DNA of 64,000 nucleotides from Candidatus Woesearchaeota archaeon (GTDB lineage: Archaea > Nanobdellota > Nanobdellia > Woesearchaeales > SM23-78), in assembly GCA_016935175.1 (NCBI GenBank), contig JAFGRK010000016.1, forward strand, positions 1 through 64,000. Direction: 5' to 3'. Shown here one piece after another: positions 15,481 to 60,612 of this stretch. The stretch's first letter is position 1; every line of letters starts with the position of its first letter. A model generated the notes under the pieces. The model did not search any database and had not been told where the DNA came from. It saw only the letters and a list, made by a program, of their open reading frames with translations. The position numbers and the translations under genes are program-made.

Positions 15481-16785
15481 TTATAATCTATTCACTAGTT
15501 CATATATCTTTTCATAAGTCTTCAGTATCTTATCAGAGCTATAATTGTCTTCATAGTTTTTCCTTGCATTATTGCTCATCTTCCTGAGGAGCGAGCTCTT
15601 CTTGCTCAGGGCCACTATCCTTGCTGCAAACCTTTCCATGTCTTTTGTTTTTTCAAGCTCACCGCAATAGCTGTGCTTGACTATGTCGTGCACCCCTCCG
15701 ACATCAAAGCCTACTATTGGAAGCCCGCTTCCTTGCGCCTCTACAAGGGCGTTGGGAGTTCCTTCAAACTTGGTGTTCATGTTAGGATGCACAAAAAGGT
15801 CTGCGGCACCATAATATTCGAATAGTTTTTCCCTGCTGACCCAGTTGATTACGCGAGCATTATCCAGCTTTTCCTGCGCAATCATCTGCTCTATCCTCTG
15901 CCTGGAATCACCATCACCTATCATAAGGAACACCAATCCCTTGTCATTCCTAAGATGATTTTTCATGGCATCAAATAAATGCACTACTCCCTTGCCTTTC
16001 ATCAGCCTGCCTGCATACAGGATTATGCTCTTATTAAGTGGCAGGCCTAGCTTTTTTCTCAGCTCCTGCTTGCTTTGCTTGACAGAGATTATCTCCACAG
16101 GGTTAGGGGCATAAATAACTTTCTCCCTAGGTAGCCTGTAATTATTGAGCAATCTTTTCTCTTCATCCCTGTTCTCAGGCACCACTAGGCTTGCCCTCCT
16201 GAAGACAATAGGGTTCATTAGCCAGTACTTATAGACTGAATAAGGAAGCGCCTTGAGGGTGAATCCTCCTCCCCGGTGCTGGATGCAAAAGGCTTGCTTG
16301 TTCTTCTTTAGGCTGGCTGATAGGAAGTCTGACATTATGAGATAGTATGAGTTGAGGTGCCAGATAGGCTTTTGCTTGCTTGCAGCCTTTCCATTCCTTT
16401 CTCTTGATTGGCTCTTGCATATACTCGATATCTCATTTAGCATGCTCCTGGAAGTCTCTAATGGAAGAAATGATGGGAAGTCTGTTGGGAAAGCCCTTAT
16501 CACAAAGCCATGCTTGTGCCTGATGCTGACAGGCTTTTTTATCTTTGAGCTCAAGACCCAGAACTCGAACTCATACTTGTTTGTATGCCTTTGCATGAAG
16601 TCAAGGTAGCGGGTGCTGAAATGGTCTAGGTTGGCAATATTCTTTATGTCCTCCTTGATTTTGGGGAATAGGAACTCAAAAGTATGGGGAAGCACGAACA
16701 TCACTTTCTGCTTTTTTCGATTCAAAATTCCTGAAGCCTTATTTTTTACCATTACTATTCCTCTTAGCTTTGAGTGCCTGGGCAT
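15481..16785 (-). CDS. Glycosyltransferase family 4/GT1 type
   Basis: ILYAGRLMKGKGV, LMIGDGDSR, ADLFVHPNMNTKFEGTPNALVEAQGSGLPIVGF. Confidence 0.9.
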   Translation of the reverse strand: MPRHSKLRGIVMVKNKASGILNRKKQKVMFVLPHTFEFLFPKIKEDIKNIANLDHFSTRYLDFMQRHTNKYEFEFWVLSSKIKKPVSIRHKHGFVIRAFPTDFPSFLPLETSRSMLNEISSICKSQSRERNGKAASKQKPIWHLNSYYLIMSDFLSASLKKNKQAFCIQHRGGGFTLKALPYSVYKYWLMNPIVFRRASLVVPENRDEEKRLLNNYRLPREKVIYAPNPVEIISVKQSKQELRKKLGLPLNKSIILYAGRLMKGKGVVHLFDAMKNHLRNDKGLVFLMIGDGDSRQRIEQMIAQEKLDNARVINWVSREKLFEYYGAADLFVHPNMNTKFEGTPNALVEAQGSGLPIVGFDVGGVHDIVKHSYCGELEKTKDMERFAARIVALSKKSSLLRKMSNNARKNYEDNYSSDKILKTYEKIYELVNRL

Positions 16786-17878
16786 ACTCTTTTGTTAGCT
16801 TGGAAGCTATTGAGCGCCAGCTAAGCTCTGCCATCATCTTCCTATAGCCATTTTGCCCGAGCGCCTGCCTTTTTCTTTTATCTTTCAGCAGTGCAACTAT
16901 TGCCTTGGCAAGGGCTTTTGGGTCTTCTGGCTTTACTAGCAAACCTGTCTTGCCATCATCAATGAACTCGTGCAAAGCCCCGACATCAGAGCATATAAGG
17001 GCTTTTTTGAAAGCATAGGCTATTGGCACGATGCCTGATGATGAGGCGTCCCTGTAAGGCATGACAATGATGGCTGACCTCTGGAAATATTCAGGGACTT
17101 CTTTCTCATGTATATATTTGTTGGTTATCTCAAGGTTTTTTTCTATATCCCTGGTTATGAGCTCCTTGTAAGGCGTCAAATCCCCTTCTCCTGCAACAAT
17201 CACTTTCAGGTCAGGGATATGCTTTTTTGCCAAGGGAACTGCCTTGAGCAGCACATCCAGGCCTTTGTACTTGAGTATCCTGCCAAAGAACAGTATGGTG
17301 TGAGGCTCTTCTCTTACCCCTTTCTTTTTCCATTGCAAGTAAAAGGTGAAGTCTCCCATCAGGAATACAAGGATCTTATCTGCTGGGACCCTGTACCTGT
17401 CAACTAGCTCTTGCTTCAGTTTTTCGCCGAGCACAATAACCTTGGTAGCCTTCTTGTCCAAAACCTTATTAACATAGATGGTCATCTTGCCTCTTATGAG
17501 CTCGCCAAGGTGAGGAGTCACCTCATGCCGGGTCACAAAGAGTTTCTTGCTCTCAAAGGGCTTGAGCAAGGCCAAGTACCAGGGATGGTTGTCCACGAAA
17601 TGGATTATGTCAGGATCCACTTGCCTTATCTTCCTGATGATGCCCTTGAAATGGAAAAGGTTGATGCTCAGGGCAGCTGTCTTGATTATGTCAGGAGGGG
17701 CCTTGACCTTTATGAGCCTTACTTTGTTGCTGAAGAGGAAAGTCTCAGAATAATCTGGCAGGAGCACATGCACATCCATGAAGCTTGATAGGGAATTGGC
17801 TAGCTGGGAAGAGTACTGCAGCATGCCGCTCCTACCGTACAAAGAGCACAACAACACCTTTATTCTCTTACTAGCCAT
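16739..17878 (-). CDS. Glycosyltransferase family 4/GT1 type
   Basis: ORF to 17890; ILFFGRILKYKGLD, VIVAGEGD, VMPYRDASSSGIVPIAYAFKKALICSD. Likely start is the second Met after a GGGGGG SD. Confidence 0.88.
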   Translation of the reverse strand: MASKRIKVLLCSLYGRSGMLQYSSQLANSLSSFMDVHVLLPDYSETFLFSNKVRLIKVKAPPDIIKTAALSINLFHFKGIIRKIRQVDPDIIHFVDNHPWYLALLKPFESKKLFVTRHEVTPHLGELIRGKMTIYVNKVLDKKATKVIVLGEKLKQELVDRYRVPADKILVFLMGDFTFYLQWKKKGVREEPHTILFFGRILKYKGLDVLLKAVPLAKKHIPDLKVIVAGEGDLTPYKELITRDIEKNLEITNKYIHEKEVPEYFQRSAIIVMPYRDASSSGIVPIAYAFKKALICSDVGALHEFIDDGKTGLLVKPEDPKALAKAIVALLKDKRKRQALGQNGYRKMMAELSWRSIASKLTKEYAQALKAKRNSNGKK

Positions 17879-17978
17879 GCTTCCCCCCATAATTGCGCTA
17901 TTCTTAGCAGGGAATACCTTAATTTAGTGCCCTTTATATTTTTTATGAACGCATACCAAACCTTTAGCATATCAATGT

Positions 17979-18303
17979 TTAATATAGGGCTGCGTTGAAA
18001 ATGTCCAGCACCAAATTAGCGAAGGCATTTTCGATTGTGTGTTCTAGCGGAGCCGGGGGATGTCCCACAACCTTTCATAACAAAGGTTGACGAAAGAATG
18101 CGACATTCGCAAGCTTCGCTTGCTCAGTCCCATAAAGGGGATTTCGGCTTTAGCCGAATATCGCCTGCCTTTTGCGAGCTTTTGGAGTGAGCGAAGCGAA
18201 CGAGCGAAAAGCTCCGGGGGAGCGGAGCCTTTTGGCATGCTTTTGTGCCTGAGCTCGGTGCTGGCTGAGCGAAGCGAAGAATTTCAACGCAGTCTTAATA
18301 TAG
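17979..18303. mobile_element. MITE-like non-autonomous element (17988-18294) with 9-bp TSD
   Basis: TIRs GGCTGCGTTGAAAAT / RC GACTGCGTTGAAATT (13/15 identical); perfect TSD TTAATATAG at 17979-17987 and 18295-18303; several internal hairpins. Confidence 0.85.
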
Positions 18304-18340: not shown

Positions 18341-19570
18341 ATGAAAGAGCTTTTCACGCTAGGAAACCTGTATGTCTCTGACTTCCTGAAAGAAGGCGAG
18401 CAGCCAAGAGGAGGAAGGTCTGAGCTCAAGCTGGTGCTGGACGAGGACCTGGGAGCTGTCAGGCTTGAGAAGCCAGCACCTCCGCAGGACATGTATGGCA
18501 AGTACTGGTACAGGTCAGGCACCAATGCTACCATGACCAATGAGCTGAAATCCATTGCTGAGAACATCATTGGATTGATGAAGCTTAATAAGGGAGACTT
18601 GTGGCTGGACATAGCCTGCAATGACGGCACCATGTTCAGGTTCATCCCTAAAGACATTGTGAAGATTGGCATTGACCCTGCTGATGACAGCTTTGTGGCT
18701 GAGTCCAGCAAGCTCGGAGATGAGATTATCCAGGATTATTTCTCAAAAAAGACTTATCAAAAGGCAAAAAAGACCAAGAACGGCACGCTAAAGGCAAAGG
18801 TTGTGACCTGCATTGCCATGTTTTATGACCTTGACAAGCCAGACCCTTTTGTCAGGGATGTCTATGACATAATGGATGACAATGGGTTATGGGTGATGCA
18901 GCTAAGCTATACCTCTCTTATGATCAAGCAGCTTGCTTTTGACAACATCTGCCACGAGCACATATACTATTATTCATTGTTCAACCTTAAGAAGCTGCTG
19001 GAGCGCAATGGATTTAAGATAATGGACTGCCAGCTCAATGATGTTAATGGCGGAAGCTTCAGGGTTTATATAATGAAGGATGTGGCTGACAAGCGCAAAT
19101 TCTCAACAGCCCCTCACAGGGATGTATGCGAGATGAGGGTAGAGTCAATCCTGAAATACGAGGAAACGCTTAAGCTGGATAAGCCCGGGATTTGGCTTGA
19201 TTTCTTCAAGAGGATTGAGGCATTAAAGAAGCAGACAGTTGATTTCATAAAAAATGAGAAATCCAAAGGCAAAAGTATCTGGGGCTATGGCGCATCAACC
19301 AAGGGCAACACCTTGCTGCAGTATTTTGGCCTGGATAGCAAGCTCATAACAGGCATAGCTGAGAGGAGCCCTTACAAGTTTGGGCTAAGGACTGTAGGGA
19401 CGAATATACCTATCTATTCCGAAGATGAGATGAGAAAGGCAAAACCGGATTATCTCCTGGTGCTTCCCTGGCATTTCATCAACGAGTTCATGAGCAGGGA
19501 GAAGGCTTTTCTTGAGGCAGGAGGCAAGTTCATTGTTCCATGCCCTAAGTTTGAGATTATAGGCAAGTGA
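18341..19570 (+). CDS. SAM-dependent sugar C-methyltransferase-like protein (two-domain)
   Basis: DLWLDIACNDGTMFRFIP; C-terminal SIWGYGASTKGNTLLQYFGL (C-methyltransferase C-terminal domain). Confidence 0.85.
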   Translation: MKELFTLGNLYVSDFLKEGEQPRGGRSELKLVLDEDLGAVRLEKPAPPQDMYGKYWYRSGTNATMTNELKSIAENIIGLMKLNKGDLWLDIACNDGTMFRFIPKDIVKIGIDPADDSFVAESSKLGDEIIQDYFSKKTYQKAKKTKNGTLKAKVVTCIAMFYDLDKPDPFVRDVYDIMDDNGLWVMQLSYTSLMIKQLAFDNICHEHIYYYSLFNLKKLLERNGFKIMDCQLNDVNGGSFRVYIMKDVADKRKFSTAPHRDVCEMRVESILKYEETLKLDKPGIWLDFFKRIEALKKQTVDFIKNEKSKGKSIWGYGASTKGNTLLQYFGLDSKLITGIAERSPYKFGLRTVGTNIPIYSEDEMRKAKPDYLLVLPWHFINEFMSREKAFLEAGGKFIVPCPKFEIIGK

Positions 19571-58978: not shown

Positions 58979-59395
58979 CTAGGATAGTAACTTGAGAAGG
59001 AACTCTTTGCTCCTGTGCTTGCCATAATACCTGTACCAATCAGGCTTCAGGCAAATCTTCTGCCTTATGCGCTTTTTTATTATTTGCAAATCCTGCGGAT
59101 TTGGGCTCCAATCATTGATTAGCTTCTTGTCAATGCCTTTGTTGTAGATGGTTTTTCTTGCGGCAAACCCTCTTTTTCTCATCTCCCTCTTCAAGAGCTC
59201 ATGCCTTTTTCTCAAATAGCCTATTTTGTTCTTGAAAAACTTGATGTGGCCCTTTCCAAGGCAATAATCCTTAGGAATGCCTTCCAAGCCCTGATGCGCT
59301 CTGACATAGGCCATGAGCATTAGCATCTCATCATACTCTGCAACAAGGTGCTGGTCTGTGAGCTTACTAGGGCTTATTAGGTTAATCCTTACCAT
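58979..59395 (-). CDS. Pyrimidine-dimer DNA glycosylase, T4 endonuclease V (DenV)-like
   Basis: MVRINLISPSKLTDQHLVAEYDE aligns with T4 [23 protein letters not shown]; also LGKGHIKFFKNKIGYLRKRHELL and PDWYRYYGK; start corrected from 59413. Confidence 0.85.
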   Translation of the reverse strand: MVRINLISPSKLTDQHLVAEYDEMLMLMAYVRAHQGLEGIPKDYCLGKGHIKFFKNKIGYLRKRHELLKREMRKRGFAARKTIYNKGIDKKLINDWSPNPQDLQIIKKRIRQKICLKPDWYRYYGKHRSKEFLLKLLS

Positions 59396-59431
59396 AAGGT
59401 TGCGAAAAGCCATGCCCTTTTTAATATTTTT

Positions 59432-59612
59432 TAATGTTTTGGTGCTGTAGAAAGTCTCGCTGGCGCTCGACCTAGCACCTTAAAAATGCAAGAGCTATAT
59501 CCATAGGTGCTGCCTCCCCGACTGGGGCGACCCCCGGCAACGCACAACATTACCTGTTTTAAAGGCATTTTTACCTTAAGGTGCTTACTTTTTCTACAGC
59601 ACCTAATGTTTT
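59432..59612. mobile_element. MITE-like element (59441-59603) with 9-bp TSD
   Basis: TIR GGTGCTGTAGAAA at both ends (right end TTTCTACAGCACC); TSD TAATGTTTT on both sides; nested inverted repeat AGCACCTTAA...TTAAGGTGCT. Confidence 0.83.
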
Positions 59613-59664: not shown

Positions 59665-60612
59665 ATGCCTGAGATGAAGCATGAACTAAGCGTCACAGTG
59701 GTGCTGATAATATTCTTCTTAGTTGCTCAAATAGTAGGATTGTCTCTCATCAACATCGATATAAGAGACGTTCAAGTGGTTGATGGCAAAGTCACTCTTG
59801 TCCATTCAGAGACCAGCCTAGGCCCAAGGCCTGAGATGAGCGGGCTAGGAACATTCCTATACATAGCCATAGGCTTGTTGATAGGCACTATCCTGATATT
59901 GCTCATAATTCGCATGAAAAAAGTAAATCTTTGGAAAGCCTGGTTCTTCCTGGCTGTGTTCATGGCCATAAGCCTCTCACTAGGGGTGTTCCTAAAGCCA
60001 GTGCTTGCTTTTGTGATTGCACTAGCATTAGCCATCTTCAAGATTTACAAGCCAAATGTTTTTGTGCACAACCTAACAGAAGTGCTCATGTACGCAGGCA
60101 TAGCAGTGTTCTTGGTGCCATTGCTCAATGTGTTCTGGGCATCAATGCTGCTGATAGCCATCTCCATCTATGACTTCATAGCAGTCTTTAAGAGCAAGCA
60201 CATGGTCAAGATGGCTAAGTTCCAGACCCAAAGCAAGGTGTTTGCAGGCTTATTCGTCCCTTATAAAACAAAGGCAGAGCCGATGCCAGCGCCAGCCATT
60301 GAAAAAAAGAAGGCCTCCAGGACCAGCAGCGCAAAAGAGCTGCCCATACCCAAGCCAGAGAAAAAGAACGCCATACTCGGAGGAGGAGACATAGCCTTCC
60401 CATTATTGTTCTCAGGAGCAGCCATGGAAAGCCTGGTGATTAAAGGATTGCCGCTAGCAACAGCGCTTTTGCAGACCATGATAATAACTGCCACAACTAC
60501 CATCGCAGTAGCCTTGCTCTTCATATTTGCAAAGAAAGACAAGTTCTACCCAGCCATGCCCATCATCAGCGCAGGATGCTTTGTAGGCTATGGGATATTA
60601 TTGCTGCTCTAA
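59665..60612 (+). CDS. Presenilin/signal-peptide-peptidase-like aspartyl protease (A22 family)
   Basis: SIYDFIAVFKSKHM (YD), LGGGDIAFPLLFSG (GxGD), FYPAMPII (PALP-like). Confidence 0.85.
   Translation: MPEMKHELSVTVVLIIFFLVAQIVGLSLINIDIRDVQVVDGKVTLVHSETSLGPRPEMSGLGTFLYIAIGLLIGTILILLIIRMKKVNLWKAWFFLAVFMAISLSLGVFLKPVLAFVIALALAIFKIYKPNVFVHNLTEVLMYAGIAVFLVPLLNVFWASMLLIAISIYDFIAVFKSKHMVKMAKFQTQSKVFAGLFVPYKTKAEPMPAPAIEKKKASRTSSAKELPIPKPEKKNAILGGGDIAFPLLFSGAAMESLVIKGLPLATALLQTMIITATTTIAVALLFIFAKKDKFYPAMPIISAGCFVGYGILLLL

What the first reader, a model, noticed from the sequence alone, without database searches (positions are those of the whole stretch)
17979..18303. 307-bp MITE-like element with near-perfect TIRs and a perfect 9-bp target duplication, packed with hairpins
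Seen directly: TTAATATAG at 17979-17987 and 18295-18303 flanks GGCTGCGTTGAAAAT...ATTTCAACGCAGTC (TIRs 13/15 identical). Interior has successive stem-loops (AACCTTT/AAAGGTT, GCAAGC-TTC-GCTTGC, TTCGGCT-TT-AGCCGAA, GCTCC...GGAGC) and repeated GAGCGAAGCGAA. It sits in the intergenic region between divergent GT4 and methyltransferase genes, so it may alter their promoters. From recall, the 9-bp TSD and GGCT..GTTGAA end resemble IS5-family (IS903-type) ends. It carries no transposase, so it would need one in trans.
Basis: partly seen in the sequence, partly recalled or inferred. Interest (0 to 1): 0.72.

Follow-up and report, generated by a model that had tools for sequence, protein, structure and literature searches.

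The report
Archaeal IS5-type MITE with nested hairpins
This is a real 307-bp "passenger" jumping element in a tiny (DPANN-type) archaeon, with the same ends as a complete IS5-family jumping gene found in a sister species, and inside it sits a second family of hairpin elements that also turns up across the archaeal order, some of it inside tRNA genes.

Summary
Confirmed. 17979-18303 is TTAATATAG + 307 bp + TTAATATAG with 13/15-matching inverted ends. A whole-window scan for 9-bp repeats flanking inverted ends finds only this and a second element (59432-59612); 30 simulated windows gave none. It is a MITE: the identical end GGCTGCGTTGAAAAT bounds a 909-bp IS5-family element with an intact transposase in a same-genus genome, and other MITEs with this end have 9-bp duplications. 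The host genome shows no such transposase, so movement would need one in trans.

The interior is not random. The arms match about 14 copies of a structured ~135-nt element in a congener; a 146-bp insert (18068-18213) in its apical loop is two hairpin units ("E") tail to tail. E is a covarying ~75-bp unit found in 77 of 288 genomes of the order. It occurs as splice-competent tRNA T-loop introns, and as insertions flanked by unusually long, variable direct repeats (26 of 91 copies, versus 4 of 452 controls). How E moves is unknown; it does not track reverse transcriptase or Y1 transposase genes.

No empty site could be tested.

The parts
17979..17987 (.). left 9-bp target site duplication TTAATATAG
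   Evidence: exact repeat
18295..18303 (.). right 9-bp target site duplication TTAATATAG
17988..18002 (+). left TIR GGCTGCGTTGAAAAT, identical to an end of the IS5-family IS in G001:C36
18280..18294 (-). right TIR GACTGCGTTGAAATT, 13/15 identical to the left one
18003..18067 (+). left arm of the structured F module
   Evidence: colinear with 14 copies in G002; sister copy in own genome C21, 92% over 37 nt
18214..18279 (+). right arm of the F module
   Evidence: C21 sister, 95% over 40 nt
18068..18213 (.). 146-bp insert in the apical loop of F: two E hairpin units tail to tail, bounded by their 5' ends
18092..18139 (+). E(+) conserved stem (GCGACATTCGC..GCTCAGTCCC), 61 bits to model R1
18130..18172 (-). 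E(-) conserved stem, divergent second copy, 17.9 bits to model R1
59432..59612 (-). second element of the same kind in the window: 9-bp repeat TAATGTTTT (AAAACATTA on the minus strand), TIR GGTGCTGTAGAAA, 163 bp, core GGGGGTCGCCCCAGTCGGGG, between divergent ORFs 58979-59413(-) and 59665-60612(+)

Best explanation
The element is a non-autonomous MITE of an IS5-family insertion sequence. An IS5-type transposase, supplied in trans, recognised the 15-bp ends GGCTGCGTTGAAAAT and inserted the 307 bp with a 9-bp staggered cut, duplicating TTAATATAG. The cargo is a structured F module (about 160 bp with its ends) whose apical loop holds two E hairpin units in inverted orientation. Shown: ends, duplication, related MITEs, an intact IS with the same ends in a sister species, and modular nesting. 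Inferred: transposition in trans by that IS or a relative now lost from, or unsampled in, this genome; that the E pair entered F as a later insertion.
For: Perfect 9-bp duplication and ends, absent from 30 simulated windows. Same TIR on a 909-bp element with a 282-aa IS5-family transposase in same-genus G001 and on a 905-bp one in G098 next to a DDE_Tnp_1 match. Related ~900-bp DDE_Tnp_1 ISs in the order with exact 9-bp duplications and GGCT-type ends, e.g. L226 CTTAATATT/GGCTCTGTTCAAAA. Short elements with TIR GGCTGYGTTGAAAAT and exact 9-bp duplications in G002, G118, G187. Sister copy in own genome C21. Arms colinear with 14 G002 copies once 18068-18213 is set aside.
Against: The own genome has no PF01609 match, although it is about 94% complete. 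No empty site could be seen, because the locus has no DNA match in 18 relatives. The G001 IS shares only the ends with the MITE, and no 9-bp duplication is visible around that IS copy. The C21 sister and several G002 F copies lack a visible 9-bp duplication and have other outer stems, so F may also move or persist in other ways.
Confidence: 0.86

Rival explanations
1. It is primarily a functional structured RNA (ncRNA or leader); the repeats at its ends are incidental helices.
For: F and E stems show compensatory changes; folding z about -5.
Against: 9-bp duplications and matching ends recur at unrelated loci with a cognate IS; copies sit at different intergenic sites; no Rfam family reaches its gathering score; it lies between two divergent genes with no conserved host gene.
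Confidence: 0.07
2. The 307 bp moved by the same unknown process as the E units (long variable direct repeats), and the 9-bp repeat is simply a short case of it.
For: It contains E units; E copies elsewhere have 11-55 bp direct repeats.
Against: The 9-bp repeats abut the IS5-type TIR, not the E 5' ends; MITEs without E have the same 9-bp repeats; the E pair lies inside the F loop.
Confidence: 0.04
3. It is an internally deleted copy of the autonomous IS (a classical deletion-derivative MITE).
For: Identical ends.
Against: Only about 15 bp at each end resemble the IS; the interior matches the F and E families instead.
Confidence: 0.03

Closest known systems
IS5-family insertion sequences (NCBIfam NF033579; haloarchaeal ISHla2-like)
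   Same: GG-starting TIR, ~900-bp autonomous partner, 9-bp duplication in several members of the order
   Different: this element has no transposase; homology to the IS is limited to ~15-bp ends; subgroup not determined
Prokaryotic/archaeal MITEs (reviewed in PMC10969869: Sulfolobus, Halobacterium and others)
   Same: short, TIR, TSD, no ORF, mobilised in trans
   Different: interior is a nest of conserved, covarying modules shared between elements with different TIRs
Palindromic repeat families (REP/BIME, Rickettsia palindromic elements; from general knowledge)
   Same: E and F are short hairpin-rich dispersed repeats
   Different: E has a fixed 5' end, long variable flanking direct repeats, and occurs inside tRNA introns
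Archaeal bulge-helix-bulge tRNA introns
   Same: some E copies lie in T-loop introns with the BHB geometry
   Different: other E copies are intergenic and duplicated at tRNA or gene ends, not introns

Membership tests
MITE | terminal inverted repeats | tested here: met
   13/15 over the terminal 15 bp
MITE | target site duplication | tested here: met
   exact 9-bp TTAATATAG; 0 of 30 simulations
MITE | short, no transposase ORF | tested here: met
   307 bp, no ORF >=80 aa inside
MITE | multiple related copies | tested here: met
   C21 sister in own genome; ~14 F copies in G002; TIR-sharing MITEs elsewhere
MITE | autonomous partner with the same ends | tested here: met
   G001:C36:23-931 in the same genus; none found in the own genome
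MITE | empty site with a single target | tested here: inconclusive
   no DNA match to the downstream gene in 18 relatives
IS5 family (partner IS) | IS5-family DDE transposase | tested here: met
   NF033579 167 bits, cut-off 140; PF01609 88 bits
IS5 family, IS903 subgroup | IS903-type transposase | tested here: inconclusive
   best full-length plasmid-borne hits are haloarchaeal IS5; enterobacterial hits cover ~45% at 30% identity
IS5 family, IS903 subgroup | 9-bp duplication and GGCT..GTTGAA ends | tested here: met
   (comparison with IS903 ends is from memory)
Group I intron or other Rfam family | match to a covariance model | tested here: not met
   no match at gathering score in the element or related loci
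BHB tRNA intron (for some E copies elsewhere) | h-B-H-B-h' at the junctions and a tRNA restored by removal | tested here: met
   L069, L077 and L087 become tRNAs only after removal; 0 of 83 displaced controls. Not applicable to the window copy

The most novel reading that the evidence does not exclude
The E unit is a previously undescribed, order-wide mobile structured element of Woesearchaeales. A fixed 5' end and a conserved C:C-mismatch/internal-loop stem insert into tRNA D/T loops and gene ends by an unknown mechanism that duplicates the host sequence from its RNA or ORF end to the insertion point. It also supplies T-loop BHB introns, i.e. a living source of archaeal tRNA introns.
Probability: 0.35. 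Interest if true: 0.88.

Novelty: new variant of a known kind. Interest (0 to 1): 0.6.

Why it matters
It gives a DPANN archaeon an IS5-type MITE with its probable autonomous partner, so trans-mobilisation is directly testable. Following its interior exposed an order-wide family of covarying hairpin elements found both as dispersed insertions with long direct repeats and as spliceable tRNA introns. That would make the open question of how archaeal tRNA introns arise and spread testable with defined sequences.

Tried and rejected
(1) Known RNA family: Rfam searches of the element and 24 related loci gave only sub-threshold, implausible hits. (2) Group I introns, known in Woesearchaeota rRNA (PMC6125680): no match. 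(3) Reverse transcriptase or Y1 transposase as mobiliser of E: presence in 288 genomes is not associated with E (RT 21/77 vs 57/212, p=1.0; Y1 30/77 vs 68/212, p=0.33). (4) E in viral contigs: none. (5) The idea, held midway, that the outer repeats were only an RNA helix: dropped after the second window element, the G002 copy and the IS with the same ends were found. (6) Empty-site search through the downstream gene: nothing comparable.

Full report
Observation. A scan of all 64 kb for an exact 9-bp repeat directly flanking 14-bp inverted ends finds two elements, 17979-18303 and 59432-59612, and none in 30 simulated windows of the same trinucleotide make-up (another control set gave 0-1 under looser limits). 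The element folds much better than its shuffles, contains no ORF >=80 aa, and lies between the divergent ORFs 16739-17890(-) and 18341-19570(+).

What it is. The window belongs to a 1.22-Mb genome. The pattern GGCTGYGTTGAAAAT occurs in 12 of 288 genomes of the order. In G001, same genus, it bounds a 909-bp element (C36:23-931) with a 282-aa transposase. That protein scores 167 bits against NCBIfam IS5 family NF033579 (cut-off 140) and 88 bits against PF01609. G098 has a 905-bp element with the same ends beside a DDE_Tnp_1 match. Other ~900-bp IS5-type elements of the order have perfect 9-bp duplications and similar ends, e.g. [CTTAATATT]GGCTCTGTTCAAAA (L226, transposase 63% identical to that of G001), L232, L233 and L234. 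Short elements with this TIR and 9-bp duplications occur in G002 [ACTCAAATT], G118 [CATAAAAAC] and G187. So the finding is a MITE of an IS5-family IS. The own genome has no PF01609 match, so the transposase must act in trans or is now absent. IS903-subgroup membership is not shown.

What is inside. The left and right arms recur in the own genome at C21 (92% over 37 and 95% over 40 nt). There the outer stem has a compensatory T-to-G / A-to-C change and the middle is different. In congener G002 a ~135-nt structured module (F) occurs up to 18 times. If window bases 18068-18213 are set aside, the two arms align end to end with 14 G002 copies. The F outer stem covaries: 8 of 22 predicted pairs show changes on both sides. 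F copies carry different outer ends, including the IS5-type end (L179). One G002 copy (L184) has an E-type insertion at the same loop.

The E unit. The 146-bp insert consists of two copies of a hairpin unit, tail to tail: E(+) stem 18092-18139 (61 bits) and a divergent E(-) stem 18130-18172 (17.9 bits); similar inverted pairs occur in G002 and G006 loci. The conserved stem is GUG-C-GAC-AUUC-GC...GC-UCA-GUC-C-CAC, with a C:C mismatch and a 4x3 internal loop. On 26 sequences 92% of cells pair, with 42 double changes against 12 in shuffles. The pattern hit 22 stretches in 257 Gb of genomes, nearly all Woesearchaeota/Nanoarchaeota MAGs (about 3 expected by chance by my estimate), and none in viral contigs. 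A covariance model hits 77 of 288 genomes of the order, up to 10 copies each, including this one.

Two kinds of E context stand out. (i) Insertions flanked by direct repeats: 26 of 91 distinct copies have repeats scoring >=13 against 4 of 452 mismatched-flank controls. The left repeat ends 18-33 nt before the stem in most cases, and the right repeat usually begins within 8 nt after it. The window insert begins 24 nt before its stem, consistent with that 5' end. The repeats are 11-55 bp or more and typically run from a tRNA or ORF end to the insertion point, sometimes with tandem insertions at one site (L045, L136, L132). (ii) tRNA T-loop introns: in L077, L069 and own-genome L087, removal at a BHB motif restores a tRNA that the program finds only after removal, with none in 83 displaced controls. 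L089 (own genome, tRNA-Ala with a second intron) has the same junction by eye. Presence of E does not track RVT_1 or Y1 transposase genes, so its mobiliser is unknown.

Mechanism. Shown: 9-bp duplication, ends shared with an intact IS5 element, modular interior, repeated E units. Inferred: the 307-bp unit transposed as a DNA element through its IS5 ends; the E pair entered the F loop by E's own route (whether before or after the MITE landed here is not known); the 9-bp duplication TTAATATAG, a TATA-like sequence, might affect the promoter of the downstream gene (untested).

Novelty. The MITE itself is a new variant of a known kind. I found no description of MITEs in DPANN archaea in the searched library, but that library is incomplete. 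The E family is the part a specialist would find surprising: I found no known family that it belongs to, but its mobility mechanism is not established here.

Limits. Genomes are draft MAGs; E and MITE copies often lie at contig ends. E boundaries were read from repeats and alignments, not experiments. In one search two further apparent tRNA restorations (L118, L098) were judged spurious because the junctions do not fit a tRNA loop. The significance of the tight coincidence of E repeat edges with tRNA or ORF ends was judged by eye on about 20 cases, not computed.

Noticed in passing
window 59432-59612: Second MITE-like element in the window (9-bp repeat TAATGTTTT, TIR GGTGCTGTAGAAA, 163 bp), also between divergent genes.
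   Followed up: partly
L005 1551-1746 (G000:C17): A 178-bp element [ACTAAAAAC]GGGTGCGTCCAGA...TCTGGACGCATCC[ACTAAAAAC] beside an E copy: another TIR type with a 9-bp duplication in the own genome.
   Followed up: no
L045, L136, L138, L053, L134, L097, L010, L035, L041, L079, L118, L139: Direct repeats around E start within a few nt of tRNA ends, start codons or stop codons and run to the insertion point, tighter than a random target duplication plus selection should give; RNA-templated origin is one idea.
   Followed up: partly
L137/L045 (AR15 chromosome CP010425): Two E-type units inserted one after another at the 3' end of a tRNA gene, each adding another copy of the 16-nt tRNA 3' end.
   Followed up: partly
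L042 and L048: Antisense to E, a conserved small ORF (M[E/K]NIL.NK.EFQDCGTERM.MSECRTSLAGKLCKGYFNKKVGW) reads through the element into the duplicated gene end.
   Followed up: no
L087, L089 (own genome C3, C11): tRNA-Ser and tRNA-Ala(CGC) genes interrupted by several introns, one in the T-loop carrying E; standard tRNA prediction misses them.
   Followed up: partly
L158, L159, L161, L162, L165, L166, L168, L169: The middle of the C21 sister element (GGTGCTCAGAAATT..AATTTCTGGCACC) is a further module repeated in G000, G002 and G006 inside elements with other outer stems.
   Followed up: no
L038 (JAFCCF010000022.1): Contig filed under an Aminicenantes bacterium carries an intron-containing archaeal-type tRNA and E; its length equals G048:C72 of the archaeal set, so it may be mis-binned or mislabelled.
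   Followed up: no
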